Shown piece after piece: positions 13,582 to 48,118 of a stretch of 64,000 nt of DNA (its first letter is position 1; each line of letters opens with the position of its first letter). Both the position numbers and the translations under genes were made by a program. The notes under the pieces were generated by a model. It was not told where the DNA came from. It saw only the letters and a program-made list of their open reading frames with translations, and did not search any database. This stretch comes from Fomitopsis serialis (taxonomy: Eukaryota; Basidiomycota; Agaricomycetes; Polyporales; Fomitopsidaceae). The stretch covers positions 124,001 to 188,000 of the forward strand of contig NW_025954980.1 of assembly GCF_022376445.1 (NCBI RefSeq), in the 5' to 3' direction.

Positions 13582-13659
13582 GTGAGTCCAGGCACACGCG
13601 CGCGAGCTCACTAACGGCAGGCGCAGGACGTGGCGACGTGCAGCGCGACGCGCATGACG

Positions 13660-16149: not shown

Positions 16150-16167
16150 CATCAGGAAAAACCCTCC
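16150..16167 (+). repeat. Left terminal inverted repeat of the 9.18-kb element
   Basis: CATCAGGAAAAA followed by a CCCTCC block pairs with the right end at 25316-25333. The first 12 bases are identical and the next 6-8 similar. Confidence 0.85.
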
Positions 16168-16295
16168 CTCGGAATTACACAGTACAGAGGGGTATTCTTC
16201 GAGTTCCACAGAATACGACGAATAGTTGCATATGGTCGCACCAATTGTAGTAATATCAATTCATTCCTCGTATTTGACGTAGTAATAAAGCCCTA

Positions 16296-16870
16296 CTAGT
16301 ACAGGTTGTAGAAGCTATGGGAATCTTTATATTGGTTAAGGTAAAATGTCGCGCACTCGTTCAAAATGTTCTCGCTTGTCCAATGTACAGGTACTGGCCC
16401 ACCCCACTTCGGATTGAGATGAACACTCCGTTCAATCAGTGAGAGCGGAACTACCGACCCGATTGCCGCCGCACCCGTCAGTGTCGTCACCTTGTACATC
16501 TGGTAGCGTGGGTCCGGAGCAGCGGCGAATTTCGACAGCCACTCGACGTAGACAAGATGTCGTGGTAATTCCGGGTTGCGCGTTCTTGTGGAAGAAGAGA
16601 AGAGCAAGGGTGATGCTTTCTCGGGGATCGAGAAGATGACCCGCACCCGTCCCACACGCATATCTACCACAACATCGGACATACATGTAAGTATTGCTAG
16701 AGACCAAAGTAGAGGAAATCATACCAGCAAGGCCATTGCGAGCTTCTGCGTTCTCGCTTTGCCGAACACGTACGAGTGCGGTGTCGAAGCGCGCCGGTAT
16801 GAGCACTTCATCATTCTGACCTATTTGACGAGGTCGCGCATGGATCGAATCGAGGGTCTCTTTACCGTGA
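16296..16870 (-). pseudogene. Plavaka-type transposase, detached C-terminal block
   Basis: Minus-strand text KETLDSIHARP, then PARFDTALV, an intron at about 16730-16675, VGRVRVIFSIP, YVEWLSKF, PLSLIERSVHL, WTSENILNECATFYLN and a stop at 16296. These motifs form the C-terminal region that normally follows directly after the HKIKF motif in Plavaka-type transposases. Here HKIKF lies at 18690, about 1.8 kb away, and GC-rich minisatellite DNA fills the gap. It was evidently part of the same gene as 18675-21477. Confidence 0.75.
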
Positions 16871-17089
16871 TACTTGACACTAGCAGGCTGCCCGTGCGCC
16901 GCACAGGTAATCCTGCGTCGCTGAAAACATCCGTCGTCGGCGCCAGACTCGCTCAGTACTAACCTGCAGTGCCGGGTGACGTGCCAGTCGTTGGAAGCCT
17001 CAGTCGAGCAGAATGGACTTAAATACAACATGATTGAGCTACGCAGCAACTCCCTATACCCGTACGCGACCCGAGTTCACCGCGGGTGT

Positions 17090-18410
17090 TGGCGTTGAAC
17101 CTTAGCTCACCGCGGGTGCAGGGTGGGCGGGTTCTGCCCATCTCCACCCTGCTCGTGCCGCGACAGCACCCGCTGTCGGCCGTTTACTCGCCGGCTGTGT
17201 CTGCATGACGCTCGCGGTCTGCATATGCTGCACGCGCCTCAGCCCTGCCCACGGTCCTCGCTCACCCTCCTGCCAGTGCTCGCTCGACCGTCTCTTCAAT
17301 GCTCTCTCGCCGATCCGCTAGCTCGTCCTCCTGCTTGCCCGCCCGTCCGCTCGCCCTCCCACTTACCTACCCGCTTTCCCGCCTGCGCGCCTGCCCGCGT
17401 GTGCATTCGCCGGCGGTGTCTGCATGCTGGGCATTCGCCCGGCGCGCTCGCGGTCGGCGTATGTGCTGTGACCTGTCCCCTCGCCAATGCGCTTGCCCGT
17501 CCGGTTGTCCGGCCGCCCACTAATCGGCCGTGTTTGCATGTGGGCACTGGCCCTACACGCTCACGTCCCGGCCCTGGCTATCGTCGCTGTCTCCCGTCTC
17601 TCGCTCACTGCGCACGCGCGCGGCCCGTTCGCCGGCTGCGCCTGTGTGTTGGGAATTGGTCGCGGTTGCCGTGCGCGTCGGGGCCGCCTGCGTGCACGCC
17701 AGCCCGCTCCGACGCTCGGCTGCTTGTGCCCACTCACCCGCCTGTCTACCACCCTGCGTGCGCGTTCGTCGACCGTGTGTACCTACTGGGCATTAACCCT
17801 ACGCGTTCGCGGTGGGCGTGTGTCGTATGCGGCGCCCTGTCCTCGCTTATTCGGGTGGTCTATGCGCGTGCTGTCCGGTTGTCAGCCTGAGCTGCATACT
17901 CGCCGGCCTCCCGCTCGTCCACTCACCTGCCCGCCTGCCCGTCCACCCGCCCATATGCCCTCCTGCCCGTCCCCTCTCCTACCGCACCGCCCGCTTTCCC
18001 ACCCATCCGCACCCGTACCTCTCTTCCTGCCTGCGTGTGCAATCGCCGGCCGTGTCTGGGTGCTGGGCATTAGCCTTGCACACTCGCAGTTGGTGTGTGT
18101 GTTGTCGCCTGCCCGCTCGCTCTCCTGCCGCAAGTCCACCCGCCCGCCCGCCATCTGTCTTTCGGCAGTCTGTATGGCTATTCGTTCGTGTACCGGAGGG
18201 GAGAAAAGTGGAGATGGCGGAATACGCACCCGCCGAGCTGCTTGTCCTCCTCCGCGCACGTCGTCGTGGCGGTGGCCGTGCTGCACTCGTCGATTGTGTT
18301 TGTGTGTGGGACACCGGCCATGCCTGCTCGCAGTCGCCGCGCACGATGTGATCCACATCACCGCACCCTGTGCCTGCGTTAGTGGGCTTGCTCGCGTGCA
18401 TCTGCACTCA
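17090..18410 (-). repeat. GC-rich minisatellite tract, locus 2, inside the transposase gene
   Basis: The same core as at 13.7-14.2 kb occurs in reverse orientation, with copies recognisable near 17170, 17405, 17526, 17637, 17770, 18047 and 18290 (for example cggYgtgtctgcatgctgggcattcg). Filler is rich in GCCCGCCC/CTCGC. Long plus-strand frames across it (up to 334 codons) are Cys/Pro/Arg-rich with no domain and are composition artefacts. The tract separates the two blocks of the Plavaka transposase, so it entered after the transposon gene formed. Confidence 0.75.
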
Positions 18411-18479
18411 CCCGTTGGCACTCGTCCTCGCCCGTCCTCGCCCGCCGTCGCCCACCGCTCGCCATTCCCCCCGCCGCCT

Positions 18480-18602
18480 CTACTGCGCTGAAAAACGTTG
18501 TCGTCGACGCCATGCGCAAGTTGGAAGGTGAAGAGCACGCGGGGTCTTCTAGCATCGCCCTCAGCTGTGCGGAGGAGAGTGCGGAGAGCAGAACAGAATA
18601 AG
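18480..18602 (+). pseudogene. Possible captured C-terminal coding fragment
   Basis: Directly after the minisatellite tract a frame reads ALKNVVVDAMRKLEGEEH and continues as a Ser/Glu-rich tail to a TAA at 18602. Its composition differs from the repeat filler and looks like the end of a real protein, but I cannot name it. It lies antisense to the interrupted transposase. Confidence 0.3.
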
Positions 18603-18674
18603 CGAGACGATTAGGCTACCGGATACGGAAAGAGCGGAAGCGCCGGCGTCCAAAAGCGGGACCACTCTCCTTTA

Positions 18675-21477
18675 CTATATAAGATTGCGGAACTTGATTT
18701 TATGGAAGACAGGTAGAGTCGCAAATGGAAACCGTACGTGGTGTGCCTGAGCTTCGATCTCGTTTCGTGTTAGAGCTGGATTGTTGAACTCCACCACGAA
18801 GCGAGCAAGAGCAGCCCTAAGATGTGTTGCGCCATAGCCCTGAGAAGACACAAGCTCGGCGACAGGGACTGCCTTTCGACTAGGATGCTTCGCCATGAGA
18901 TGATGTAACGGACACGCCATATCTGGCGGCCGCCAGTGTATCTCTTGACGGGCAGCGATGAGATCATGCTGCTCACGTTGCACTCGTAGGAGACGCCATT
19001 CAACGTAGTTGGCGTGCTGCAGCACCTTCTCGCGCCTTTCGAGCCACTTCGTCATTTGTGGGAATTCGTCCTTATGGTTCGTTGCACGGTAGGCCTCTTT
19101 CGCGAAGTCAATATGGAGTCGCTCGGTGGACTCTGTGTTGTAATTGTCGGTCGTACCGTAGAGTTTGATCGCGCGGACGTAGTGCGTCATCATGTGAAGC
19201 TTCGGGAGGAGGAAGTGATCTCGTATGCCAAGCCGGATGAAGACGTCCTTATTCGCATGGAATTCGGACAGTGAGCGCTCGAGTGCAGCCAGAGTTGCGC
19301 CTGAATGGACCGAGTATTGCGCCATATACACGAAGTCCAGAAGGGCTTTCGTAGCACTGAACAGGTCCGCGACTGACTCACCACCAGGCAGCTGAACATC
19401 GACCAGAAGGCCAAGCATGAACCGTGCCATCTGCTTGTGTTCAGTACCTGTAACACGCGTTAAGCCGGTGATTCCTTTATGGAATATGCGGATGGTGTGG
19501 TTAGGTGGTAGTCGCCGAACCCGCGCGTCGATCTCGTCCTCGCCGACAATACTGGTGAGCCAAGCAAGCAAATGTTTGACAATCCCTTGATAGAGCTGAT
19601 GTAAGATGTCGGGCGTGATCGACCGATAGATGTCGACGTAAGGGAGGTTCTCCCAAAATGGATGTTGGATTGGCTTAATGCCGGCGGCGTCACAAGCCTT
19701 GTTGTAATCGGCTGTACCATAGAGACCTAGAGTGGCGAAAACCTCGTCGACATCGCGATAGTCGGACAAGCATGGGTAAGCCCCGAGGTCGTCGTGAGAG
19801 CAATGACAGATTGGACACTCGCCGGTGTATGTTCCTGTTACGAGGACTTGTTCGGGATAGTCCCCGACGTACACGGCGAGGATTGGATGGCAGCGCCGCT
19901 GTATACCGTCGCCGCTGGTCATGGGGATACCTTCTACACCAGCTTTCTGCAAAGGTTCCATGATCATCGACATACATGCATGGAAGACGTTCGCCACAGT
20001 CCGACGCCGGGCTGCTTTGTTTTTGATATGTTCGAGGCGGCTCGTTGGAAGGTAAGCGAGGAGAATTTGCCCGCGATGTGACGGCTTGCGGCGGATCTCC
20101 TTCGGAAGGTTGCCAATCGTAAGATAGACTGGGTATGCAGTCTTGTTTCGGAACGTTGTCAATTGAGTCTTATCTGATGATATGATGATGGGAATAACTG
20201 TTGCACCCGGCGTTTCCTTCTCGAGTATCTTCTGCATGTACATTCAGTGAAGTTTGAGGAGATCGAAGAGATGAATGCACCTGTGTCGCCCACCACCACT
20301 CTCCAGTATGGAGATCATGGTACAAGCGGAGCGTCTTGTCCGCATCAGCATAGTGGCGCTCTGGCGCGATGCATAGATATGCCGCATGCTCGGGGTCACC
20401 GTAGAGCGCACGGATACACTCGAGAATGTCACGGCAGAACATCTCAAAGTGCTCGCCTCCGACGCATGCCTCAAAGCGGTGGAATGCGGGCCGTCGGTTT
20501 GGAAGCCCCTCGTCAATGATCTTGTTCAGCTCGTCGCTATTTTTGTATGACAAGCCCAACAGTTCGCGAACCTAGTAAGAACCCCTTGATGAGTTTGGGA
20601 TAGAGCATGACTGACAGAAGGGACAGACCTCTTCGATAGCGAGAAGATCGGAGAACGCAGTTGACCCTGACCCACGAAGTTTAGCCCAGCGCGCAATCTC
20701 CCAGTCCAGACGTGAAGCGAATGGTGCATAAGGATTAACTGCATCTGGATCAACCTTGCCTTCGTACGAGGTGTAGCCAGAGCGTGGTAGCTGCCCTGGT
20801 TGAGAGGGCTTGCCAGCCTCGCCACCGAATGGGACGATGTGCTCGGGTGGTTCGCGGATCTGCGTATGCTCTGCGGGGTCGACTCCACCCGGGCCTGCTG
20901 CAACACCCTGTCCGTCTTGGGTAGCAGGTTCGTGTCCGGCTTCTGAGTGAGCAGTGGAAGTTGGTTCGGGTGTGCGACGACCTAGAGGTGCAGGGGGAAG
21001 CTGATGCCCATCTCGCTCGGTCTCCATTGTGGGCTGGACAACATCCTGCCCGACAGCGTCGTCGTCGTCGTCAGCGTCGTCATCACTTGACTCCTCTGCT
21101 GGCTCATGGGAGTCAGGATCGATGTCGACGCGAACCTCGTCACCAAACGGAAGATCTCCACCAGCATAGTCACCCGCAGCACCGAAGTAATCGCCCTCAA
21201 ATGGCATGGGTTCGTCCTCATCATCTGCGTCAAGGTCTTCAGTTGCGGCCGATGCAGGTGCGGATCCGTTGCTCCTGGATCCCGAGGAACGCGATCGATT
21301 GTTTGAGCGTGAATGTGCGGCTCGCCGATGGCTAGCCTGACGAGTCGGTCGTCGTACAGACTCCTCGTGTTGCCGGCGTGCGAGCTGGCAGGCAGGTCTT
21401 TCACTCTGCCGAAGATGTTGTAGATAGGGTCCGCGTTGTGCGAAGGTAGCGGTGCAGCCGTTACATGTGTATGGCAT
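18675..21477 (-). CDS. Plavaka/KDZ-type transposase, main block (3' truncated)
   Basis: Three exons: 21477-20629, 20571-20281 and 20231-18675, separated by 57- and 49-nt introns in phase. The N-terminus has a C2H2-like finger (CNGCTATF, LQHLRQSE) and an acidic, Ser-rich linker of about 200 residues. The catalytic part follows: PIIISSDKTQLT, RPKAYPVYLT-like and GNLPKEIRRKPS motifs, a Cys-rich ECPICHCSHDDLG, then ITPDILHQLYQG and HFLLPKLHMMTHY. These are hallmarks of basidiomycete Plavaka transposases, which cut and paste DNA elements with TIRs. The frame stops just after HKIKFRN, where family members continue; the missing block is at 16296-16870. No frameshift in the 840 residues present, so the disruption is recent. 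Confidence 0.88.
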
Positions 21478-22113
21478 TATGGCAAGGGGTTGGTAGTATA
21501 CACGGAGACGCTAGGAAATCCGGTTGTCAGTATGGGGTCAAGGCCGTGCAAGGATTTCAGCTTACTAAAGTACAGATATTTGACGAGTGCAGATGCAGAG
21601 AGACCTGACGGCGTGGAAGACGTTGAGTCCAGAGATCGATGGTTGACAGTGCACGCGGCTCGTGACGCAGTAACAGTCGCTGCTTGCCGAACTGGCACTG
21701 GGGTGAAGGGCATCACAGTGTCACATCTCACACTGCATCGGCACGTCCTAACCCGCCAGCGCATTCTCTCTCTTTCATCCGGTCTCCTTTGGCGTTCGAA
21801 AGCCTTCCTTCCGACTCATAGTACTCTATCCAACTTCCATTTAATCCTAAGACTAGCAGCATCCGAAGAGACTCACCAAGAACACCAGCCGTACACTGGC
21901 TCCCACCATCGTGGTTGTCTCGACGACGAACCTCTCTAGCAAATCTGTTACTCCGTTGACAGACATTCATTTGTGGTGCGCATTACTTACTTGACAGGGG
22001 CCTGGCTGTTTATAGCTCCATACTGTTGTCGTTTTGCAAGCCTGCTTTCGACACTACCTCATGTCTATTGACGCAGGTCGCACCCTGACTGACTTCTCGC
22101 CCTTAAGTCAGGA
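21478..22113. promoter_or_regulatory. Divergent promoter interval of the 9.18-kb element
   Basis: The 636 bases between the transposase ATG (21477, minus) and the DUF6532 ATG (22114, plus) contain no supported gene. The two transcripts run away from each other, so this interval must carry both promoters. No clear TATA box was seen. Confidence 0.5.
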
Positions 22114-24886
22114 ATGTCGGCAGCAAGCCGTCGTCCTCGCGCTAGCCGTGTGGGTCGTATATCAGAGGTCGACCGAGACGGCTCACACGATGATCTGGTT
22201 GATGAACCTCCCGCGGAGTGTAAGAATGGATTCACCAGCTAATATGCGCATACTAACCTTCGAATACTAGCAGCCGGCCGACCTGTGCGTGTCACAGCCC
22301 AAGCTGCTCACACAAAGTGGGCGACAATTGTGCCAAAGCGACGTGACGTGTCCGGCTCGCAGACTGCTGGAGAAGGCCAGCCAGTTAGTAGGAAGTCATC
22401 AAATGGTATACTGTCGCACAACGACTGTACGTACATTCTTGATTCTGATCCATTCGATGTAGGCAAGAAGAAACAATCCGATGTTGAAGTAACCTCGTCG
22501 ACGTCTAAGGCAGCCAAGGCAAAGCGGAAGAGAGAAGATTCGGCAGTGGCGAAGGTTAACAGTACCAATAGTGGTGGTAGGAACGCTGGGGCCCGGGATG
22601 CAATGCCGCCGAAGTCGCTGAACATCGATAGCCATGCAGAAACAGAGCGCTCTTCAAAGAAGTTGAAGGTTGCCGGCGCCTTGAGACCACCGGAGTCCGA
22701 ACCGACTCGGAGTACGTATCTTTCAATTGACTTGCAAGTACGTGTCTAATGCCGTGGCCAGAGAAAGCCCACCGGGCAGCTCGGATCGACGTCGACCACT
22801 CGGATAGTGAACCCGCCGACGAGTCACCACTAGCCTCACAGACCAAGTCTCAAACTTCCAAGGCGATCACACCTGCAAGGGTGGTCCGTTCCACGTCAGC
22901 TTCTCGGCTTGCTGAGGAGACCTTTGACGACGATGGCGAAGAAGAATTCGATGATGTGGACGGCGAGCTGCAGGGGGGCGATGATGAGGAAGCGGAGCAT
23001 CGCGAGGTCTGTGATGACTTCGACGCAGAGGTAAGCCGAATCCGATCTGTTTACTCTGACCCTAGTCACTCAAGTATGATGCATCACAGCGCGTCACTTT
23101 CACTGCTGCAGGTGAGCACAGTATACCTATTCACACGGCAAATTAGTTCTCACTAGATCTCTGACTTGTGCCTCCGTGTTCCGACACTCGGATAGGTAAC
23201 CAAGGTGCCACTGGCAATAACTTCAGTGCGACGAGTGCAAGTCCGCCTCGCTTCCATTCAAGAGGTTCTCGTTCCTCAAGTGTTGGTTCATATCCCACCG
23301 AACCGCCGACAACTGACGACGCTGATGTTGTCGTGGATGAGCCTGAAGAAGTTGAGAGCGAGGACGACGATGACGATCCTCCATCTCGTAACAGCAAGAC
23401 CAGTCGCTATGCTGTTTCGCGCCGCACCGTGAAATACATCGAGGATAGTGATGATGACTTGGACATGGTCAATGAGAGTGGGCCGGCTGTATCCAGGAAC
23501 GTGTCGAAGCAGGTATGTGTGCCGTGCTGCGTACTACCTCAGTGGATGTAATTAACCTACTGTTGAAGCTGACTAAGAAGCAGCAAGAGAAACTGAAATC
23601 GGAGGTGAGTTGTTCTTGTACGAACTCAACATCAATGTCACCAACCTTTCACTAGATGCCTATCATCCGTCCCTCTGCTTCGAAGGTCAAGGTTGCAAAA
23701 CGCCCTCGTCATGTCCGCCGTGAGGACGACAATGGTCGTTGGAGGTCGCGGACGCATATTATCGTCAACTACAAATCACGTAGTGTGACCATGGATATCA
23801 AGCCGCAAAGTGCACTGATGGGGCAAGTGATCCATAACAGCTACGTCATTGGTGACCGTATGATGGCTTTTGGATTCGAAAACCCGGTTGACTATGCTAG
23901 TCTCGACGACATCCAGGAAATGACGAATCCGATGGACAAGGCTGGGCTTGAAGACATCGCTCTTGAGGCGTTAATCTGCTCTTCTGATAAGCTTGGGTAT
24001 ACTGGCCAGGGCGACGTCTCGGAACGATTGGAGAAAGGATCCTATGATGACTATGTCCGACCCATAACTGCCTACGTCGGTTTTATTGCTGTACATCTGT
24101 GGCTTCTTTACTGATGAATTGTCGCAGGTTTCTCATCGGCTAGGGCTCTTTCGAACTGCGATCAAACGTGCTGTAACGCCGTCTGTCGAGCATGCATATC
24201 AATCCATGATTCAACCTGTGAACAATCACAATGCGCCCGGTGGTGACATTCTTCTACAGAACATGAACTACATTTATCCTTGGACGCTCTCGGTGCGTAC
24301 CAGCAATGTTGCATGTCTAATATCGCATGACTTATGTTTTCACTCGCAGGACGGGTTTGATTACCGTTCTCCGTACGAGAACTCACTTATCAAGCCTGCA
24401 GTACGCGCTGCATTCTTCACGAACGTGCAGTATCTCAGTACTGGGCTGAAAAACGGTGGAACATTTGCGTCATCACTGTCAAGTGCCCCCTCCGAGTATG
24501 AGATTCCACCGACTATGATGGCCTTGGCTATGACAGCGGTATGTTTGGTGATTGAATCAGCATTGTGTTGTTGTCTTACCGTCTTTGAGGTCGAGTCAGT
24601 GATATCAGATAACAAACTCGGCCTAAGCAAGGCCTCCGACTTCAGCGCCACCAGTATACCCGCATACGAGGCCCATATGACGCGGCTCACTGCGTTCCGC
24701 CACGAACGCCCAAAGCGATACCACAGAGTCATGCATGATGTCTTCACAGCCGTGACGTATGGCACTCCTAACTCGTGTGATGGTGAATTTCACTGATTTC
24801 TTTATCGTAGGGTGGGACATGCGATGCATCCTGGCATACAGAATGGCAATGCCGCGATCAACTGGAGTGACATACCCGATGAATAG
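22114..24886 (+). CDS. DUF6532 protein with long acidic/Ser-rich N-terminus
   Basis: About ten exons. The start MSAASRRPRASRVGR at 22114 is followed by basic and acidic low-complexity segments (KAKRKRED, DDDGEEEFDD, SEDDDDDPPS), likely nuclear. The C-terminal half carries the DUF6532 pattern: HRLGLFRTAIKRAV, NYIYPW, FDYRSPYENSLIKPAVRAAFFT, EIPPTMMALAMTA and RYHRVMHDVF. The last exon, after an acceptor near 24811, ends INWSDIPDE with a stop at 24886. Every exon junction has a plausible donor and acceptor and no internal stop is forced, so the gene looks intact. DUF6532 proteins are numerous in Agaricomycetes and of unknown function. Here the gene lies inside a TIR element opposite a transposase, suggesting an accessory protein of the transposon. 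Confidence 0.75.
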
Positions 24887-25333
24887 AGGCGGTGCTCTGG
24901 CGAACGAGCCTGATCATGGTGGCACTGGTAGTGTGAATAGTAATTGACTACTTAATCCTCGTTTCCCCCCCTCATGCTCTCGATGCTTTCTGTGTCTGCC
25001 TTCCTGCTGCTCTCGTTGCTCGTGTTCTGGTCCGGACAGTGCACCTACTACTACTCTTCCATGCAATGCATTAATTGTTCGTTCTTCAACCAAATGCGGC
25101 GAGAAATCCAACCGTGATTCTGCCTGAAATGCCCAAGAATACCTTTGAATGTGCAGTGGAATACGTATCAAATACTGGATAATTCTGTATAATATTGAGC
25201 ATCCAGACTCGGGACCCATGGACCCTAGGTAGTGTGCGGTATTACTGGAAGCAACTGAATGGGAAGGATTACCCCTCATTACGTGGAAACTGGTATAATT
25301 ATTGCTCATTCACAGGAGAGTTTTTTCCTGATG
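24887..25333. other. Right terminal region of the 9.18-kb element
   Basis: Non-coding sequence between the DUF6532 stop and the right terminus, including a C/T-rich patch near 24965-25030. The terminal inverted repeat occupies the last 18 bases (25316-25333). Confidence 0.6.
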
Positions 25334-28300
25334 CACAGGGAATCCCTGTACCCTGCAGGAAAGTCCTGACGAGGTCGCCGAGTGCGTAGTCGCGACCATC
25401 AACCCTCAGTGTGCGCTGCTCCTGTGGCACCGTGCTCGCAGTGCGGATGTCCAGCTGCGGCGCGATGGAGCTGTATGCCATGATGTATGCAGCCCATACC
25501 TCGTTGACGAACGTGTTAGAGCCACCTACATACAGGCGAACAGCCTAGTAGGAGTCGGTGTGAGTACATGGTGGGCCTGGGCAGTCGGCGAGGTCATACC
25601 TGCGTGAAATCGAACCCATTGGCACACGGGAGCCTGAGACCACGCAGAAAGCTCTGGGTATCGGTGTGTTGGGGGCTTTCGTTGCCTAATAGTCCCTTGT
25701 ACAGTATGAGGGCGGCGACACCACGATGTGTCGCAGGATCCCGGTCACGGAGACTTCTGACCTATCGAGAATATGAGCACTGGTGACGACATAGGAAAGG
25801 CTATAGCCTTACATCAACCTCGGCATACTCCACGATGTCCGAGATGAAGGGGGTTATGTCACCTGCAGGACCAGCATCCAGGAAGGCTGACAGCCGCGTC
25901 GTGAATGCTGGGTGCCATTCGGCCATGATCGCCTTCGTGACAGATTCGATGCAGCACCCATGGATCAGGTAGTGCAGGAATACAGGGTCGAGGGGCTTCG
26001 GGCACTGGCCATTGACCATGAGGAGTGCAGTCAGGGCCCCGAAGATCGTGAGCTCCTTCTTGCGGGCGAGCCTGTTTTCTTCAGCAGCAAAGTGAGCGAT
26101 GGGACTGTTAGCGATCGTCCAGGTCCCATCTAGGCCAGGCCGACAGAACCTGGGATCTCCCTGGTATTTCTGGAGTGCTGTCCACAAAACCTCACGCTCG
26201 ACACCTGCACCGAATGACACTACTGCTCCAGCTGGCGACAGCCTGTAGCATGGAGGTAAGCCTAGTGAACAGTGAGGGCGAGGTACTGACCAACCTTCGG
26301 AACACGCGATCAGGCGACAGTAGGGCTGTGTAATCGCCGAGATGGGCAGCATCAACTTGAATAAGATACTCCCGGAGGGCATCGACCATCGCATCCATGC
26401 TAGTCCCTTCAATTCGCAGTGAAAATGGCCGTGCCTGTGCACCCCGCGCCCTGCCACTACCGTGGGCCTCAGGGTGGCGGCTGGCTGCAGCATAGACAGC
26501 TTCAGCGAAGCCACTCAGCTCGCTGTATTGCTGGCCACCGACAGCATCCCTCGGCAGTTCTGGCTCCCACGGCGACTGCCAGATATCACGGGGCATGAAT
26601 GCAGCTACAGCCGATGGCATAGACGATGTGCGAGCAAGACTTGGCACTGTACGACCCTGGAATATTGCAGGAAAAAAAGATGATGAACTGTGGCGAGTAC
26701 GGGACATAATGAAGCTCACATTCAGCTGAGCACCAGCTCTGGGCCCAGTCGTGGCATCTGTCATTCCAATATCCGAGTCGGTCGTGGAGGCTGGGCTGCC
26801 CGGGTTGCTGTTCGTGCGATCAGGACTTCCTAGCATGGGTGACGGAGGGGGTACAGCTACACCGTGACTGAGCATCAGCAATCAGAGGCTCAGGAGGCTC
26901 GGGGAGATGTGCCATACGACTAGGTTCTCGAACATCGTCAAGGCAGCCAATGCACAGAGGGGCAGAGGTGATCGCTTGTGGCCACTCATCCACTGCGAAT
27001 CGCCCATATAACGCGGTAGCAATGCATGTATGCTCACGAGCGACTGTGGATGGCTGGACGACAGCGAGCAGGGGGCCCGTACATATCACTACAGGGAAGA
27101 CCTATTAGGCACAGCTCGCCACATACTGGCGAACACTGCTCACCAAATCGCAGAACAAAACGGCCATTGTAAAAGCCGTGGTCGCTGTGAGCGAAGCGGT
27201 GCTTATCTGCGAGGAGCATCTCGACTGTTTTGTCGGCCCACAGGGGCTTATGATCGAGATAGACCTGGCCGTCCGCACGACGAATGCCACGGTTTTTTAA
27301 GCTTAAAATGCCGAGAGGGAGGCGCTCATGCTCAAAGGCGAGATGATCGGCAGTGGGGACCTCATAGTGGAAAGACGAGGTCCGCATCTCAAGCAAGACC
27401 ATTCTCGCCAGGCGGGGCAGTGGTGTTGACAGCGGGATGTCAAAGTCGTGACAGAGCCCATGCCCTCGCAGATGATCGACGAAGCTGTCCCGTCCGAAGT
27501 TATAGGCAATAAGTGGAGCTGACGGAGGGTCCTACCGTCTTTCGGTCAGCACCGGGCACATAATAGCCACGATGGTCACTTACAGGCTGCGGATAGATCA
27601 GACAGGTCACTTTGACCTGGTCTTCGGCATGTGGTATAGGGGATCGTATGATATGGGGGAGATGCGGGAGCGACGGTGGATGCTGTGCCGAGCCACGTGT
27701 GCGGCGGGGCCGAGCTGACAGGCTGGAGCCCGCCGTGCGAGGCATACGAGCTGACGATGACAGGCGAGCTACATTGACCTGGCTGGAAGCCTGGGGACGG
27801 AGCCTGTTCAATCCCAGGATAGGCTGTGTCAGGCTACGGCTTGGGCCGGGGCCCGGAGTGACTTCGGTGGTGTTGTACAGCGACGATGGGCCTGCTACCT
27901 GCGACGAAGAACCAGGGGGGCCATGGCACCGAGGGGGCTGGTCCGAGCACTGTGATACGACACAAGACTCGGTGGTGGGCTACTTTGCTCTGCGAGGTGC
28001 AGAGTTCAGTACAAAGCTCACTGACGAAACTCGCAGAGACGAACCAAAGGTAGGCATGCCATGCCAAGGTGTCGTCGACCTCTGTGCGACAGGATTGCCA
28101 GGGGTTATGGCCCATGGGGGCATATTGGGATGCGAGGGCGACCCAGCTACTTCGCCAGCCGAGACGATGTGGCCCTGAAAGGATGGGTGCGACGATGGCC
28201 TTGCTTCAGGCACCAGCTCAGAAGCCCCAGCTGTTTGGCTAACTCGGTGAGGCTGTCCGGGAACACTCGGCCGAGTAGGCGATGAGGACTGCTCCGAAGA

Positions 28301-28579
28301 GTGCGAGATCAGATGCATCGTCAGTGGAAGTCAGACAACAGGGACTTACCCAAGCCGACTGTGTCGAAGGCTGACCTGCGACAGTATAGGGGGCTGCAGA
28401 GGTCGTGTTCTGGCTAGGAGTGACCGACACAGGGTGCTGCTGCAAGACTCCAGGCTGGGTCTCGCCATAGGCCTGCGAGGGGTTCGGGCCAGGTAGCGAC
28501 GAATTTGGGGCTGTATTCGAGGCAGTTTGGATGAGAGCCATGAGATCGGCCTGTTGCTGAGCCGAGAGTCGACTGAAGT
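25334..28579 (-). pseudogene. 5' part of the transposon-split HECT-like gene
   Basis: Reading on the minus strand from an ATG at 28579 (MDFSRLSAQQQADLM), several exons join in frame. First comes a Gln/Pro/Ser-rich region (28579-27990), then a conserved domain (KVTCLIYPQP; RDSFVDHLRGHGL; WADKTVEMLLADKHRF) at about 27590-27150, then a Cys-containing and Ser-rich segment. A HECT-like region follows (SMDAMVDALREYL, VSFGAGVEREVLWTAL, KKELTIFGALTALL, LRVDGRDYALGDLVRTFLQ) ending TGIPC. HECT domains ligate ubiquitin to substrates through a Cys; whether this divergent family does so is unproven. The frame runs into transposon sequence at 25333 and stops within about 12 residues. The missing C-terminus is at 15700-16149. 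Confidence 0.65.
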
Positions 28580-40781: not shown

Positions 40782-40997
40782 CTAGGCACGCTGTCGAGCC
40801 ATCTTCATGAAGCAACACTCGACGAAGTGAATGTTGTTACCCTCGATGGTGGGCTCGGGCTGCTCAGCCTGTGCGCGAGCCGAGCGTCAGGCCGCCGCCG
40901 TTGCCTTGCATTCCCTTTCGTAGCTGTTCCTGTCCGTGATACGCAATGAATACGATCATGCAACGAGAACGCATATGTCTGATTCCGTCTGTACTAC

Positions 40998-41695
40998 CTA
41001 AATAGGATCATTCTGCGGTGCAGTCAGTTCAGGCGCCACCCATTCGATGTTGAATTCCAACCACTCCTGTTGCTTCCTGTCCAAGGCGGCAAAGACAGCC
41101 TCCCAATCTCTGCACAACAAGTTGTCCCCCATCCTGTGCGCGGCATAATCCCTCTGCATGAAATCACCCTCCTCAAGCGTGTCGATGGCGTCGCAAAGGA
41201 ATGTCTGTCGGAGATAGTTGAGACAATGTTGCCAGTGGTGGTAGTTGGGCTCTTCGTCCGAGTGCCCGTACTTGGTGAGCACTCCGCTGTGTAACGTTCG
41301 CAGGCAATGAAGCTGGTGTCCGAAGACTGTGGCGACGGAGCGGAATTGCGGACCGACGTGCGTGCTTCCAAAATGCCGTGGCTTGTCCAGCGCATCCCAC
41401 TCTTTGTTGGCCATGTGATCGGATACATTCAGGGAGAAGTGAACCGACTCCTGGAGCGTCATTGCAACGCGCTCGATGTTGCTGACAGGAAATTCGACGG
41501 GGTAGTCATGGCCTATGTAAGAGTATTCCTTCGCCACGACTGTGGGCAAGTCTTTCAGCATACTGCCACAATCTGACTCGGAAGACATTCACCCGCTGCT
41601 GGACTGGGATCTCGAAGGAATTCTGCCAGGAGCCAAGCGGTGGCCATGACCTGAATCAGCGCCGCGATCCATATCGTCTTCTGTAAGGACGACAT
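40998..41695 (-). CDS. UstYa-like (DUF3328) oxidase, copy 1
   Basis: Exon 1 (41695-41593) supplies an N-terminal membrane helix (TIWIAALIQVMATAWLLAEF). A 53-nt intron follows, and exon 2 (41539-40998) starts VVAKEYSYIGHDYP. Both HxxHC motifs of the family are present: HQLHC and HWQHC, the second followed by LNYLRQ. UstYa-type proteins are membrane-anchored enzymes that oxidise or cyclise small peptides and other secondary metabolites in fungi. With both motifs intact this copy is probably active. A start at 41588 without the helix is possible but would lack the anchor usual in the family. A related, disrupted copy lies next door. Confidence 0.8.
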
Positions 41696-42541
41696 CGAGC
41701 TTCGTGCTGCTGCGAACCTCAGGGGTTGTCACTGCGATGGCGGTGAATTCTATGAGCAATTCTCAGTGACTGAGTCAGGAGGACGCACATACACGTAGTG
41801 CCCGCTGTAGGCCGTATGGACAGTTTGGAAACGGTTTCGGCGGCCGAACAAGAACTGTCGTGCGCGTGTGGTGTGCCGTAGTGCGTCGACCGTATGCACG
41901 GTAATTAGCTTTCCCTTTCCACTGAATGTCAATTGCGGAGAGTGCATGCCTTTGACAGCGCAAGGTTTGATCTGCCTGACTGAACAACCATAAGCCTTGC
42001 TTTGAATTTGTCGTCATAGAACTTAGGAATGGACATCTCCATGATCAATTCAGCATGCTTTATCATGGAGATCCGTCCGAGTTGAACAAACGTAGGCGTG
42101 CTGCGATAAAATCCGAGTCAGGACATCGAACTTCAAGTTGTGACTTGTGGGCATTGCAAAATCACTGCCCGAGTAAACCGACCTCCTCGCAGTAGTACTG
42201 CATGCCTTGAACTTAGACTCCTCGCTGCTGTGGCGGGCACACCTGATACATACGGGTTTAGAAAGCCTGATAATGCCTGGGTTACTCATGCCCCGGCCTC
42301 ACCTTGAGTGCCACGAGGCCTGTTGGATTTGTATTTCACTGCATATAGGAATTGAGTTATGTGGCGGTCATCGGCGGAGCTGGCACGTACCGAGGAATCT
42401 TCAGCCACGGGGACCATTGACATACGCTGCAGTCGAGGTCCCAAGTACTGGAGCAGACAAGTGTCAGTCGGATCTACCTTACAAGAGTGCTGCACACCTA
42501 CTGGCAAACTTCCCCCAAGTTGAGCCGACGCTGACCTCACC
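41696..42541. other. Divergent interval between the two UstYa-like genes
   Basis: The two UstYa-like genes are transcribed away from each other across this 846-base interval, which must hold both promoters. No gene or strong repeat is visible. Confidence 0.45.
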
Positions 42542-43107
42542 ATGCCAGTTCGCCACCGGCTCGGACGCGCGATTGTCCTCGTCCCTTTGCTAGTAGCAAT
42601 ATGCATCTTAGCTGGATACACTGGCACATCGGTGTTCTTCGCTCGCACCCATGACGCGCCTCTGGTACAAGTAGCCGCATTGGCAAAGAGGCATGCTGCG
42701 CACCTTTCAGAAGGTCGGCCTTTATCGCGCTTGGTGTTGAATACCTAACGTCCTAACCAGTTGTGTCTAGATGGTTTACAATTCGAAATCCTGCTGTCCG
42801 CTCCCGTTGCAATGAGCATCGGAGACACTGTACGGTATCAGCTTAATGACCCGTTCGCGGAGGAGGAGTACGCTAGGCTGATGCCTTCTGGGGGGCATCT
42901 TGTGTATGTGCACGATGCAGGTCGTCCAAGGGGTGATGCGGTCGAAGAACCAGGTCCCAGAGCGTACACGGTGACACTGTTCCACCAACTCAAGTGTCTC
43001 GACATCATCCGGCGCGAGTTGACGGACGACAGCCTGGAGACGCCAACGATACGCGCAGCCCATTGCATGAACTACCTGCGTCAAATGATCATCTGCCGAG
43101 TCAACAC

Positions 43108-43132
43108 CATCAGGAAAATCTGGATTCCCTAA
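43108..43132 (+). repeat. Left terminal inverted repeat of the 5.01-kb element
   Basis: Twenty-five bases pairing with 48093-48117 with two mismatches. The first 11 bases are shared with the 9.18-kb element. Confidence 0.9.
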
Positions 43133-43559
43133 ATTTGACTATCTTAGTTCTAATTAGTCTCATCTTCCTAATGACACTCTCATTGAGCATGATTAGTACT
43201 AATCAGGATAACATGCATAATTTAGTTCATACTATGAAGATCTTATTCATATTAGCTGTAATTGTTCATAATAGTTCATAATCCTCAGCACATTGAGACA
43301 TAAATATGACTATGGTACAGCTATGCCTGCCAAGATGTTGATCAGCATGGAAAGTAGAGCATTCTTCAAAACAATACTGGTGATCCAATCACAAGGCTGG
43401 CCCCAGTCATAGATATCACAAATGGAATGAGGAGATCTAGGACTATGATATCAACAGCTCATACACAAGCTCTATTTAGTATACAGGTATGAGACAGAGG
43501 CAAACATCGAGAGAGGGGCTGGCAGAAACAATATATCTGCATGTGGCTAATTGTCCTTT

Positions 43560-43740
43560 GAACAGAGTGTACAGTCGGCAAGCAGGCAAACGAGCAAACA
43601 AATGAATGGGTACGTGAACGAATGTGCGGGACAGCGGGAGGGCGAGCGAGCGAGCAAATGGGTTGGCGGGCAGACAAACGAGGGGGCATCAGGCCAGCAC
43701 GAGCAGGGAAATGCAATGATAGGATGTGAGAATGCGAGAT
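43560..43740 (+). repeat. GAGC/GGGC-rich filler tract in the 5.01-kb element
   Basis: Runs of gcgagcgagcgagcaaatggg and gcgggcagacaaacgag resemble the filler between minisatellite cores at 13.7-14.2 kb, without a clear core copy. Confidence 0.5.
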
Positions 43741-43899
43741 TAATTGACCCACTGAACATACCCTTGGCACGGCGGGTACAGCCTGCACGATGCACATACG
43801 TCTCGGTGCTCGAGGGAATCCGGAGCTGGATGACGTGTGAGGGTAGTCGATGCCGCGCGTAGACGCGTCCAAGGTGACGAGGATTGTGGGCTTGCTTGC

Positions 43900-44745
43900 G
43901 AACAGAACGACGCACCGGCCTTGTCATATCGCACTGGGCTCAACTTGCTCAAACAGTCCTCCTCCGCCTTCCGCTTCGCCGCTGCGTGCCTTTCCTCTTC
44001 CTCCTCCTTCTGCTCGCGCTTTGCCTCCTCCCTAATTTGCTTCACGATCTCTTCACGCACCTTCTTCAGCTTGTTCTTCGTCTCGGGTCTGAGCTGCGCG
44101 CCGAGACCTCCGCGTATCCCGGTCGCCTTGCCCTCGCCCGCGATCGTGTCGACGAGCTGGAAGGCGGCTTGGATCGAGGGGTAGTGTAGCAGCAGCATCA
44201 GACGATGGTGGCAGCCTCAGCTCGAGGATGAGACGCTTGCCACGCTGGCTCTGGGGGAGGGGCGCGCTGGGCCGGGTGCAGGGATTGTTCGTGATCGACA
44301 GCGAGGGAAGTACTTCAGGGTAGACAGGTTCGAGAGCACCACAGGGAGGTCGAGCGCGCCGAGGGGCTTGAGGAGGTTCGTGGTGACGTCCGCGAACTCG
44401 GACATGGCCGTGAGCGAGGGCGGGAGGGATGGCTGGTCGGTCGTCTTGGTGAAGGAGGTCCCAACGGCGCGCGGATGCCCATCAGTACATCCTTCGCGAC
44501 GACGGCGAAGACGCAATCGGGGACGGCGCTGGCGGAGGCGCGCGCGCTGAAGGTGAAGTCGAGCTTGACAGCATCGGCGGCTTGTTAGTCGAGCTCCACG
44601 AGGCCGCGCCCGAATTGGTAGGCGAGTTAGAGGAGGTCGTGTGCAGGGACTCAGAGTTGCTGTCGCGGGCAAGGCCTTTTGGTGCTACAGGTTTAGAAAA
44701 CTGAGCTTCTAGTAATGACGAGTATGCGTCGAACCTCAGCTCTGA
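43900..44745 (-). pseudogene. DUF1682 / CCDC47-like pseudogene inside the transposon
   Basis: On the minus strand, in several frames, the order of motifs is that of DUF1682 (CCDC47-like) proteins: LLEAQFSKPVAPKGL near 44690, LVELD and DAVKLDFTFSA near 44580, VVAKDVLMGI, then FTKTTDQPSLPPSLTAMSEFADVTTNLLKPLGALDLP near 44390. The C-terminal charged coiled coil follows (TKNKLKKVREEIVKQI, AAAKRKAEED) to about 43940. At least three frame changes separate these blocks. In animals CCDC47 is an ER membrane protein of the PAT chaperone/translocon complex; the fungal family is its homologue. This copy is non-functional and lies wholly within the 5.01-kb element, so it looks like captured host sequence. 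Confidence 0.75.
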
Positions 44746-44749
44746 GTGG

Positions 44750-45075
44750 ATTTCGAGAATCTTCGTCGTTATCTGGCCTTCGAGCCGTGGAACAACTGGC
44801 CAGCGCGAGGGACGGAGGAGATGAGGGAGTTGACGTGGTCGATCCGCGTGCAGAGCTCGACAGTCGAGCGTTGAAGTCAATATCAGAGACATGGGCGCGG
44901 ACGTCGTCAAGGCGGGCGTGCATGTCGGTAGACTCGAGGTCCGGAAGGCGCGAGCGCACATCTAGCATGTCGGGGATGCGCGCGTGGATCTCGTCGGACT
45001 TAGGTATGTCCGGTATGTGGGGACGTGGTGGCGTAGCGAGGCAGGACAGATGTTCAGAGGGGCGCAAGAATTGGC
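44750..45075 (-). pseudogene. Second captured coding fragment, unknown family
   Basis: A minus-strand frame reads HIPDIPKSDEIHARIPDMLDVR, then RLDDVRAHVSDIDFNARL, then shifts frame near 44890 into LISSVPR-like text. The spaced ARLxD/RLPD pattern suggests amphipathic helices. The family was not recognised. It abuts the DUF1682 remnant. Confidence 0.4.
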
Positions 45076-46100
45076 AGACAGTGGTCATCCGGGGAGCACG
45101 GCGAGCACGTCGGTCAGCAGTCTCTGAATTTGAATGACGAAGCGGATATACCACGCGATATGCTCACAGGGCGCGTGCGTGCACGGTCTTTTCAGCGGAT
45201 CGAGGCACAGCGACCTATCCGCCAGTGAGCCAGCACGGTCATGCACTGAAACCAAACGCAGCAAGAGAAAGATACATCGAACGGGGGCGCACCTTTGGTT
45301 TCGAGCCTTCGCGCTCGCTGTAATCTCCCTCTTCCCCCCGTCGCCCTTCGAACTTCATGCTCTACTCACCCTCTCCTTCTTCCGTGTTCGTTTTTGTATG
45401 ACCGGGAGATGGCGCGGGAGCTTTGATGCGTGGCGTTCGGCCAAGGTGGGGTAGTAGCAGTCGTGGGTGAGTCGCCAGTTGAATACGACGGTCCGGTAAG
45501 TGAGTGGGCAGATAACCACGCGCATAGCGCGGGGACGGGTAGACGAGCGAGTGTCCACGGATGGTCAAGACTCCGTGCGAGTAGGCAGATGAGTCGACGC
45601 GTGCGGCGAGTAGTGGGCGGGCGAGATTGGACTTGCAGGTTTGGACTCTGGCGGTCACGGTCTGGCGGTCTGAATCACGGTCGTCGAGAGCCACGTTCGG
45701 GCGCTAAAGACTTAGCTCACCTCCTCTCCCACTGCCAGCGCATCCGTCCACGCACCTAGCTTGCCCGCCCTCTCGCGCCCGCCCGCCCACACAGACCCGA
45801 ATCGCAGAAATGTAAACGTCGGCGTGACCGTACATGCCGCTCGCGCAAGTGCTGGACGCACCTGCTAGCTGACACTGCCTTCGACAACACAGGCTCTCGT
45901 GCTGTACCACGCAGCATAAAGACGATGCGCGCGAGCAAGACAAGCCCGAGCGCAACGAGCACGAACCGAAGACGAGGCATACAATAAGACGAGGGGCGGG
46001 AGTATTGAACGAAAGGAAGGCAGACAGACGGAAAATGCAGGTGAGTAGCCTCTACTAATCTGTTGCTAGTTACCATGCCTGAGTACGCGTATCGACGAGC
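45076..46100. other. Interior of the 5.01-kb element, no supported gene
   Basis: GC-rich DNA with short frames in all phases. A patch at 45490-45620 resembles minisatellite filler. No domain is visible. Confidence 0.4.
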
Positions 46101-47045
46101 TCGGAGCTCGCGCTATCTATAATATTGCCCACCAGCTCACGCATCCCGCTCAAATGCCCGCGCATCCGGCTTGTCCACCCTCGAGCGACAATCTGCCCAC
46201 CGTCTCGCACACACCTCCCCTCCTGTGCATGTCCATCCTCTCGCGCCCCCTCACCCTCTTGCACACGCCCGCTCAAACCCGCCCGCGCGTTGTTGCCTAC
46301 CTGTTCCCGCAGCTCGCTCACCCGTTCTCGCCGTCTGTTCACCAGCCCCCGCCGTCTGCTCGCGCAATCTCGTCGCCCATCTCTCCTGTCTCGCTCACTG
46401 ACATCCGCCAGTCTGGCGCGCTCGCCGTTCCTGGCCGCTCACCGTCCTCGATCGCTAGCTTGCCTGTAAGCTGTCGACCTACTCGCTCGCCTACTCGTCC
46501 CTGCTTTTGCCCGCTAGCTAGCTCGGTGTTCGTCGACTCGGTAGCCCGCTCTCGCCCTCTCCCTAGCTCACCCGCCGTCTGACTCGGTCATAAGGTATTT
46601 TTGCTTGAGTAGGTGCATCGACGAGCAATGAGCTCGTCGTGCCTACTTGTCCGGTAGTCTGCGCATCTGGTTGAATTGCCCACGTGTCCATCCTGCTTTC
46701 TCGTGCTCCACTAACTTACCCTTTTCGCGCCCGCTCGCTCTTGCGCCCGCTCTCACGCGTCTCGTCCGCCGTCTGCCTACCCACCCTCGGTAGCTGCTCA
46801 CTCTCACCTCTTCGCTGGCTTGCCCACCTCCCGCTCTTGCTCGCCTGCTCGTTCTCGTTCTCGTCCACCCGTCCCTCTTGCTAGCTCATGCACTTGTCTG
46901 CTCGCTCCTCACTAGCTCGTTCGTCCACTCGGCGCTCTTTCCCGTCCGCCTGTCTTGCCCGCCTGCATCCTCGCCCTCCTATCAGCTCACTTGCGTGCCC
47001 GTTCGCTCTCGCCTCTCCCGCCCGCTCGCCCTGTATGGTCTGCAC
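46100..47045 (-). repeat. C/T-rich (GAGC/GGGC) tract in the 5.01-kb element
   Basis: Repeated cgctcgc, gcccgctcgc and ctcgccc strings run for about 900 bases, like the filler of the 17.1-18.4 kb tract. Reading frames rich in Ser/Pro/Leu/Arg here are artefacts. Confidence 0.6.
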
Positions 47046-47232
47046 GCCCTCGCGGTTGCCTACGAGGTTCATGGCGACAACATCACATCTCATGGCAACG
47101 GTTCCGAGCTCATTGACCTTCTCAAGATCTTCGACTCGGACACCAAGTAGACTATACATGATGCGCAGGCTCTCGGCGTGCAGATGCTGCTGCGCGGCCA
47201 CCGATACTTCTTTTGCGGTGATGTCGAGGTAT
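47046..47232 (+). pseudogene. Third captured coding fragment, unknown family
   Basis: A frame starting abruptly at the end of the C/T-rich tract reads LHALAVAYEVHGDN, GSELIDLLKIFDSDTK, a TAG stop, then TIHDAQALGVQMLLRG and RYFFCGDVE, ending at a gtatgt donor. The stop interrupts an otherwise smooth frame where a Trp codon would fit (TGG to TAG). I cannot name the source gene. Confidence 0.45.
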
Positions 47233-47439
47233 GTATGTTAGAGTTTCCCTGTATTGATAATTGACCTACCCACCCAGCACGTTTCCGCGTTCGAGCGTGC
47301 ACTACCACGAGCACACCGATAGCTCGAATTGGGACGCGGACATTAGTCAACGAATGAGTGGCAGTGAGTACAAATGCAGACAAATGAACGAGCTGACTGT
47401 TCGCACAGGGTACGGCAGCATGGAGCACAACGTGCACGA

Positions 47440-47700
47440 CGACCACGCGCACGATGACCACGAGCACGCAGGGTAATGCCTTGCGTGTAGACACGGCTGA
47501 TGGATGGTCGGCGAGATGGGCGAGCTGTCGGATGGTGGATGAGCAGGTAGAGGAGCAGGCAAGTGGACCAACGGGCAGGCGGGTACAGGGCGCAGGCAAA
47601 TGCCTAGCACGCAGACAGGGCTACCGAATGCACATGCAGGCGGGGCGGGCACACAGGCGGGCGAGCAGGTAAACGAGAGGGAGCACGTGTGCAGGTGAGC
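47440..47700 (+). repeat. Minisatellite core copies, locus 3
   Basis: Two cores with the pattern caggg-taatgcc-ttgcgtgtagacacggctgatg (47466) and gcaggcaaatgcctagcacgcagac (47597) match the 13.7-14.2 kb family in the same orientation. They lie near the right end of the 5.01-kb element. Confidence 0.65.
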
Positions 47701-48118
47701 CACCAGGTGCACGTACAGGGAAATGGGCAGGCAGGCGACCTGTATTAGGCTGAGGGTATGATAGATAGTATACGTGCACTGCTGTTTGTCAGTAGATATG
47801 TATCTGGAATACAATCTTTGAATCACATTGTTGTTGTGCGAGATGGTCAGGCATGTGCTCACTCTCCTCTACTCCGTGTATTGAGGACTCATTGTGGAGG
47901 ATCATAGCTAATGTATACGGAATTGTCACAGGATTACACCTCAGATAGCGCACATTAGAACTCATTAGGACATCATTAGGGACTAATTAGTACTAATTAG
48001 TTTGGGGGTAAAGGAATGTTGAATAATCACTAATCCTCCTATTTTGTCCTAATTGTATCAAAATTTGCCTCATTGAACCTAATTACATCTCATTAGGGAA
48101 TTCAGGTTTTCCTGATGT

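What the first reader, a model, noticed from the sequence alone, without database searches (positions are those of the whole stretch)
16150..48117. Two elements with identical 11-base termini: a transposase-bearing Plavaka-type element and a gene-fragment-bearing derivative
Both the 9.18-kb element (16150-25333) and the 5.01-kb element (43108-48117) begin and end with CATCAGGAAAA in inverted orientation. The first carries a Plavaka-type transposase and a DUF6532 gene. The second has no transposase but carries pieces of host genes. This is the pattern of an autonomous transposon and a non-autonomous Pack-type element mobilised in trans. Gene-fragment capture by Plavaka/KDZ-type elements is, to my knowledge, little described. 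The shared termini are seen directly; the functional relation is inferred.
Basis: partly seen in the sequence, partly recalled or inferred. Interest (0 to 1): 0.9.

Follow-up and report, generated by a model that had tools for sequence, protein, structure and literature searches.

The report
Transposons carrying scraps of host genes
Two mobile DNA elements with matching tips sit in what looks like a fungal genome, one with the enzyme family that moves such elements and one that has picked up bits of ordinary genes, and one of those bits looks as if it was copied from a spliced message rather than from the gene itself.

Summary
CATCAGGAAAA bounds both elements in inverted orientation, and occurs 419 times in the 66-Mb genome against 9 for the reversed-letter control. 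Near-identical copies at other sites end at it. CATCA..TGATG ends with 2-3 bp target duplications are the published signature of PlavakaB transposons, so the terminus is known. Element 1 has a Plavaka transposase and an outward-facing DUF6532 gene, a layout repeated across the genome. Element 2 is a non-autonomous, Pack-type member carrying pieces of three host genes (a DEAD-box helicase, CCDC47, a P-type ATPase), each with a candidate parent locus. The pairing of these two elements is not supported: beyond 11 bp their ends are no more alike than shuffled sequence, and no transposase was found in any of 17 element pairs with element-2-type ends. New here: in two diverged lineages of element 2's family the captured CCDC47 piece lacks the parent gene's 61-bp intron exactly, and its 5' edge lies at an exon start. 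This points to capture from spliced RNA or cDNA. It is one capture event, and no outgroup gene was available to exclude a later intron gain in the parent.

The parts
16150..25333 (.). Element 1 (e1), 9,184-bp PlavakaB-type transposon
   Evidence: inverted CATCAGGAAAA ends, Plavaka transposase and DUF6532, flanking CA/CA 2-bp duplication
16150..16160 (+). e1 left terminus CATCAGGAAAA; flank ends in CA (16148-16149)
25323..25333 (-). e1 right terminus; flank begins with CA (25334-25335)
18675..20243 (-). Plavaka transposase, main open frame (522 aa), profile 98-325
   Evidence: PF18759 E=1.4e-88
20170..20571 (-). Plavaka transposase N-terminal part in another frame (intron or frameshift between, not resolved)
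   Evidence: PF18759 E=1e-23, profile 1-102
24068..24796 (+). DUF6532 gene piece, pointing at the right end, 0.54 kb from it
   Evidence: PF20149 E=1.4e-16; same layout elsewhere in the genome
43108..48117 (.). Element 2 (e2), 5,010-bp non-autonomous Pack-type element with PlavakaB termini
   Evidence: inverted ends, AT-rich ends (36-39% GC) around a 60% GC interior, related copies
43108..43130 (+). e2 left terminus; first 23 bp match the right end with 2 differences
   Evidence: e2-type ends at 39 places genome-wide, 0 in control
48095..48117 (-). e2 right terminus
43445..43925 (-). DEAD-box helicase-derived piece, 3' part (older capture; e2 338-818)
   Evidence: e2 641-818 is 79% identical to candidate parent C224; e2 338-818 shared at 70% with the C76/C129 elements; Helicase_C in the C129 copy 2.9e-7
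44735..45417 (-). Helicase-derived piece, 5' part, on the other side of the CCDC47 piece (e2 1628-2310)
   Evidence: e2 1667-1725 is 83.6% identical to C224; C76/C129 71-73% in blocks
43934..44734 (-). Captured CCDC47 piece, inserted into the helicase piece
   Evidence: 89% to the C1:387689 parent (L063) over 709 bp; PF07946 1.3e-12; junctions; absent from L012 and C76/C129, and within a larger missing stretch in L021
44663..44664 (-). Exon-exon junction: the parent's 61-bp intron (L063 896-956) is absent exactly between these bases
   Evidence: alignment, intron coordinates
47036..47179 (+). Piece similar to a gene read as a plasma-membrane P-type H+-ATPase
   Evidence: 77% to C1:1734581-1734736 (L070) over 156 alignment columns; protein hit 64%; enzyme name recalled, supported in calls only by a weak HAD-hydrolase hit of the parent
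42749..43107 (+). Left half of a UstYa-family host gene interrupted by e2 (described only, not joined)
   Evidence: PF11807 1e-9

Best explanation
Both elements are cut-and-paste transposons with PlavakaB termini. Shown: shared terminal core, copies at other sites ending there, 2-bp target duplications in most elements examined, Plavaka transposase + DUF6532 in e1, and three host-gene pieces in e2 with candidate parent loci. Inferred: e2 moves in trans through a PlavakaB transposase that reads the 11-bp core plus family-specific subterminal sequence, so more likely one belonging to its own still unfound autonomous family than the one in e1. e2 was built in steps: an ancestor that shares its left-arm interior with the transposase-bearing elements C76/C129 already carried a DEAD-box helicase fragment; a CCDC47 fragment was then inserted into that fragment; the family later spread and diverged. 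Because the CCDC47 fragment lacks the parent's intron exactly and starts at an exon boundary, its source was most likely spliced mRNA, converted to cDNA (for example by a retroelement reverse transcriptase) and used to fill a break in the element. The RNA step is strongly suggested, not proven; the break-filling step is inference.
For: Termini and copies. 2-bp duplication identical in 13 of 21 elements, binomial P 2.8e-11. Transposase and DUF6532. e2 family and the state without CCDC47: L012 lacks e2 793-1638, C76/C129 lack 818-1628; C76 and C129 read across the insertion point uninterrupted. Candidate parents: C1 CCDC47, C224 helicase (identical match at C243), C1 ATPase. Exact loss of the 61-bp intron in e2 and, with different secondary deletions, in the C9/C179 lineage. 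5' edge at the exon-2 start in both. A Copia reverse transcriptase is present in the genome.
Against: e2's own flanks are not a clean 2-bp duplication (AC/TC), and 8 of 21 elements fail that test, among them nearly identical copies L013/L018 and L014. No transposase-bearing element with e2-type ends was found (0 of 17 pairs; the hit lists are lower bounds), and the terminal stretches of C76/C129 do not resemble e2's (best score 8.5, below the shuffle 95% point), so trans-mobilisation and its agent are not shown. The intron argument rests on one capture event seen in two lineages and one parent. The parent's intron 1 holds a GCTGAG near its 3' end that also occurs at the helicase junction, so the exon-edge coincidence could be a microhomology artefact. 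The parent's exon 3 breaks frame at a C run, so the held copy may contain an error. The helicase and ATPase matches do not reach across a recognisable parent intron and test nothing. No RNA data.
Confidence: 0.68

Rival explanations
1. DNA-level capture, as proposed for plant Pack-TYPE elements; the C1 CCDC47 gene gained its 61-bp intron after the capture.
For: Explains the missing intron without RNA. Intron gains do occur in fungi (recalled).
Against: Also needs the 5' edge to fall at the neighbouring intron's 3' splice site by chance or by the GCTGAG microhomology. The intron is an ordinary GT..AG one and the frame continues across its two exons.
Confidence: 0.15
2. A processed retrocopy of CCDC47 arose first in the genome, and the element later took up that DNA (or the retrocopy inserted into the element) by an unrelated event.
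For: Gives an intronless source; no special property of PlavakaB needed. A Copia element lies inside another element with the same termini, L026, so retroelements do insert into them.
Against: No free intronless CCDC47 copy was found: the 7 matches are e2, three element copies, the parent and two helicase-tail matches. The piece ends inside exon 3, so no poly(A) end is expected or seen.
Confidence: 0.3
3. One reading: e1's own transposase mobilises e2.
For: Shared 11-bp core at all four ends; same window.
Against: No similarity beyond the core; e2-type ends form their own group; other small elements match another transposase-bearing element, L009, far better.
Confidence: 0.2
4. The 11-base match is chance and the pieces are random repeats.
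For: None found.
Against: 419 against 9 genome-wide; boundaries of near-identical copies.
Confidence: 0.01

Closest known systems
PlavakaB transposons (Kojima 2025, PMC12730594; passages read)
   Same: Termini CATCA..TGATG; 2 or 3 bp duplications; Plavaka transposase; described there from Agaricomycotina.
   Different: The paper describes capture of TET/JBP dioxygenase genes. 'DUF6532', 'gene capture' and 'gene fragment' occur 0 times in its main text, and the passages read describe no intronless capture. Its supplements with termini were not readable here.
Pack-TYPE / Pack-CACTA elements of plants (PMC8903248; passages read)
   Same: Non-autonomous elements with TIRs like those of autonomous relatives, carrying coding pieces from several loci and amplified. 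EnSpm/CACTA is the group that Plavaka transposases resemble (PMC12730594).
   Different: Plants. The capture proposed there is DNA-based (tandem insertion and re-mobilisation); 'intron', 'cDNA' and 'fungi' occur 0 times in that main text.
hAT transduplication in Pyrenophora tritici-repentis (PMC3538342; passages read)
   Same: Fungal DNA transposon carrying a host gene between TIRs, with transposase-bearing and non-autonomous forms; called there the first example in fungi.
   Different: hAT in an ascomycete, histone H3-like gene; no spliced capture in the passages seen.
Helitron gene capture in Pleurotus ostreatus (PMC4289320; search listing only)
   Same: Gene-fragment capture by a DNA transposon in a mushroom.
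   Different: Rolling-circle element without TIRs (recalled).
Processed pseudogenes / retrocopies (recalled); template switching in LTR retrotransposons (PMC13317346, passages)
   Same: Exact intron loss; chimeras made by reverse transcription from unrelated RNAs.
   Different: Here the piece lies inside a TIR DNA transposon and is truncated at both ends.

Membership tests
PlavakaB | Plavaka-type transposase (PF18759) | tested here: met
   e1 only; none found in e2
PlavakaB | Termini CATCA..TGATG | tested here: met
   Both elements, signature from PMC12730594
PlavakaB | 2 or 3 bp target-site duplication | tested here: inconclusive
   13 of 21 elements identical at 2 bp, e1 among them; e2 itself AC/TC, not met
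PlavakaB | Placement of the transposase in the PlavakaB clade | not tested
   No tree was built; the reference sequences are in supplements that were not readable here
Pack-TYPE element (e2) | No transposase | tested here: met
Pack-TYPE element (e2) | Carries fragments of host genes with identifiable parents | tested here: met
   Candidate parents: CCDC47 89%, helicase 79-84%, ATPase 77% at DNA level
Pack-TYPE element (e2) | TIRs like those of an autonomous partner | tested here: inconclusive
   11-bp core shared; no transposase-bearing element with e2-type extended ends
Pack-TYPE element (e2) | Amplified with its cargo | tested here: met
   CCDC47-bearing copies on C9, C21, C75, C179, C357 besides e2
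Autonomous transposon (e1) | Intact, expressed, active transposase | tested here: inconclusive
   The 522-aa frame has no stop, but the domain is split over two frames; activity not testable

The most novel reading that the evidence does not exclude
Cut-and-paste DNA transposons of the PlavakaB group can take up host genes as spliced, reverse-transcribed copies, so that DNA transposons shuffle exons through an RNA intermediate. The CCDC47 piece would be the demonstrated case. An intron-free 2-oxoglutarate dehydrogenase piece (357 profile positions in 1,067 bp, with one stop) in another element family with these termini would be a second, still lacking a parent gene for comparison.
Probability: 0.45. 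Interest if true: 0.82.

Novelty: new variant of a known kind. Interest (0 to 1): 0.6.

Why it matters
The capture model that I saw in print for TIR transposons is DNA-based (PMC8903248), and RNA template switching is described for LTR retrotransposons (PMC13317346). An intron lost exactly inside a fragment held by a TIR transposon would show an RNA/cDNA route there and tie reverse transcriptase to DNA-transposon exon shuffling. Separately, CATCAGGAAAA gives a simple handle for annotating these elements in this genome, and the outward-facing DUF6532 gene at the end opposite the transposase gives an unnamed domain a testable role as the group's second gene.

Tried and rejected
Tried without result: e1-e2 end similarity beyond the core; a transposase inside the 16.8-kb pair with e2-type ends at C179:101900, which is instead an e2-family copy (its first 2.9 kb and last 0.5 kb follow e2) with a large stretch not read; Pfam on 120 ORFs of 12 small elements, the longest 8-12 of each (A1: 63 ORFs, 0 families; A2: 57 ORFs, only E1_dh, Transket_pyr and Pentapeptide, one member each); host parents of L010 and L019 by DNA search, where I saw only repeated matches (of 212 and 92 candidates 40 each were scored), with one candidate stretch read and judged not a gene by eye; the C796 dehydrogenase as parent of the 2-oxoglutarate dehydrogenase piece, rejected because only a short, poor alignment forms (that it is a DHTKD1-like paralogue is my reading, from no call); a chimeric open frame in the C21 copy, rejected by eye as out of frame in the helicase part; the fold of the DUF6532 frame from one sequence, pLDDT 44, not used; PDB search of the transposase, no match. 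The lists of ends, transposase hits and DUF6532 hits were typed by hand; one search lists only 100 of 419 places, one search leaves some matches unlisted, and searches scored only part of their candidates; place C82:319 was dropped.
Full report
What was checked. The two elements are 9,184 bp (e1) and 5,010 bp (e2). In the 66.19-Mb genome the motif occurs 419 times (204 + 215) against 9 (2 + 7) for the reversed-letter control. Among the first 100 listed places, 19 neighbouring pairs within 15 kb are convergent, against 10 -+, 6 ++ and 2 --; shuffled strands give a mean of 9.3 and a maximum of 19 in 10,000.

Are these true ends? Nearly identical copies at different sites align up to the motif, to within 3 bp: L014/L015 (99.9%), L013/L018 (99.9-100%), the left ends of C76/C129 (99.9%) and C9/C179 (99.7%), C335/C788 (97%), C7/C270 (99.9%); the flanks outside the motif differ. 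Of 21 elements examined (e1, e2 and the 19 fetched pairs), 13 have identical 2-bp flanks, where 1 in 16 would be expected (P 2.8e-11). e1 has CA/CA. e2 has AC/TC, and seven others also fail, so a 2-bp duplication is common in the group but not shown for e2.

What e1 is. Two open frames match the Plavaka transposase (PF18759, 1.4e-88 and 1e-23) and a third matches DUF6532 (1.4e-16). The genome gives 86 matches to the e1 transposase frame, 139 to PF18759 and 152 to DUF6532; all are lower bounds, and one gene can give several matches. On contigs C2-C81, where the list of ends is complete, 20 of 28 DUF6532 loci have a CATCAGGAAAA end within 2.5 kb downstream and 0 of 28 have one within 2.5 kb in the wrong direction. 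For the transposase 12 of 18 have an outward end within 10 kb and 3 of 18 a wrong-way one. In C7, C22, C28, C29 and C63 the two genes lie towards opposite ends and point outwards, as in e1. DUF6532 therefore looks like the usual second gene of these elements. In the held library one paper names the domain, in a list of additional Pfam domains of two Ganoderma species that also names Plavaka (PMC8955403, one passage).

Known family. Kojima (PMC12730594, passages) divides Plavaka into PlavakaA (TGT..ACA, 2-bp duplication) and PlavakaB (CATCA..TGATG, 2 or 3 bp) and relates Plavaka to EnSpm rather than KDZ. The Marasmius oreades genome paper (PMC8290104, passages) says that it characterised the TIR motif of KDZ and Plavaka elements in a supplementary figure, which I could not see. 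e1 and e2 carry the PlavakaB terminus. I built no transposase tree, so clade membership rests on the termini and the Pfam domain.

What e2 is. No transposase was detected. e2-type ends (22-bp pattern, up to 2 mismatches) occur at 39 places (15 exact), with 0 in the control, forming 17 pairs of 4.1-16.8 kb; none of the 17 holds a listed Plavaka or DUF6532 match. The pattern takes in two subgroups, that of e2 and that of L010. e2 matches L011 (C9), L012 (C10), L017 (C21) and L021 (C39) and copies on C75, C357 and C179 in blocks of about 70-90% identity. Beyond the 11-bp core, e1 and e2 ends score 7.5 and 9.0 over 80 bp (shuffle 95% point 9.0, maximum 12.5), while e2 against L011, L012, L017 and L021 scores 47-76. 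The transposase-bearing L009 matches the small elements L013, L018, L019 and L023 at 38-47 on one end and 15-23.5 on the other; e1 matches L016 and L020 weakly, at 12-19.5. Plausible autonomous/non-autonomous couples thus exist here, but e1-e2 is not visibly one.

Host-gene cargo. (a) DEAD-box helicase: e2 641-818 and parts of 1628-1725 match C224 at 79-84%; C243 gives the same protein match. The surrounding e2 338-818 and 1628-2310 are shared at 70-73% in blocks with the left arm of C76 (18.0 kb between its ends) and C129 (right end not fetched), which also hold Plavaka and DUF6532 matches; the C129 copy hits Helicase_C (2.9e-7). The terminal stretches of C76/C129 do not resemble e2's. (b) CCDC47: e2 831-1629, 89% to C1 (L063), inserted inside the helicase piece. 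L012 and C76/C129 lack just this stretch, L021 a larger one; C76 and C129 read across the insertion point uninterrupted, L012 with small gaps. This is the state before capture or a later loss. (c) A piece 77% identical to C1:1734581-1734736, which I read as the plasma-membrane H+-ATPase gene (name recalled; Pfam gives only a weak HAD-hydrolase hit to the parent and none to the e2 piece). A separate set of elements with CATCAGGAAAA ends (C57 = L022, C71 = L026) carries 2-oxoglutarate dehydrogenase E1 pieces, and another piece lies 0.3 kb inside the end at C76:67771.

The intron. The C1 CCDC47 gene has a 61-bp GT..AG intron at L063 896-956; its flanking exons join in frame, although further into exon 3 the held sequence breaks frame at a C run. 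In e2 and in the C179 copy (99.7% identical to C9) the two exons are joined with no base of the intron left, although the two lineages have different deletions nearby. The 5' edge of the piece lies at the first base of exon 2 in both lineages; a GCTGAG in intron 1 allows a microhomology reading of that edge. The C21, C75 and C357 copies have lost this region and say nothing. The simplest account is capture of a spliced copy. Rivals are a later intron gain in the parent, or a lost intronless retrocopy as source; one search found no such copy outside elements. The helicase and ATPase matches do not span a recognisable parent intron. The 2-oxoglutarate dehydrogenase piece in C57 covers 357 profile positions in 1,067 bp without an intron, but no parent gene was found: the one related multi-exon gene, C796, is too distant to align. 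It is suggestive only.

Print. Searches in the held library: 'Plavaka' (11 papers, 10 listed), DUF6532/PF20149 (1 paper), Pack-TYPE with fungal terms (21 papers, 15 listed), DNA transposon + captured + introns + cDNA + spliced + Pack-MULE (5 papers), Pack-MULE with intron terms (254 papers, 10 listed). In the listings and passages seen I found no gene-fragment-bearing non-autonomous Plavaka element and no intronless capture by a TIR transposon; most subscription papers are not held. Fungal transduplication by hAT (PMC3538342, passages) and Helitron capture in Pleurotus (PMC4289320, listing only) mean that gene capture by fungal DNA transposons is not itself new.

Verdict. A real, amplified gene-fragment-bearing subfamily of a known transposon group, with a recurrent second gene and one strong but single case of spliced capture.

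Noticed in passing
C2-C81 of G000 (window example 24068-24796): DUF6532 genes sit within 2.5 kb of a CATCAGGAAAA end and point at it in 20 of 28 loci; 0 of 28 have a wrong-way end within that distance.
   Followed up: yes
42749-43107 and from 48118: e2 interrupts a UstYa-family (mycotoxin-biosynthesis type) host gene; the left half hits PF11807, the right-hand piece alone hits nothing.
   Followed up: partly
L022 (C57), L026 (C71), C76:68041-68419, C789, C788: Pieces of a 2-oxoglutarate dehydrogenase E1 gene, in or beside CATCAGGAAAA ends on C57, C71 and C76 (ends near C789 and C788 not checked), while no close host gene was found in the held assembly.
   Followed up: partly
L026:3405-8149: A Copia-type retrotransposon (RVT_2, gag) is nested in an element with CATCAGGAAAA ends.
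   Followed up: no
C179:101900-118660: e2-family copy of 16.8 kb whose first 2.9 kb and last 0.5 kb follow e2; the middle was not read.
   Followed up: no
L063 (C1:387689), exon 3: The parent CCDC47 reading frame breaks at a short C run where the element copies have one more C; possible assembly error.
   Followed up: no
C13:217291-230899 (L014, L015): Two 99.9% identical elements about 7 kb apart in opposite orientation; one has identical 2-bp flanks, the other not.
   Followed up: no
window 13567-13716 (C113:137567-137716); L010 about 3336-3563: A segment of about 130-230 bp of L010 recurs at 75-91% identity at about 20 places outside the L010-type pairs, one of them in this window; nature unknown.
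   Followed up: no
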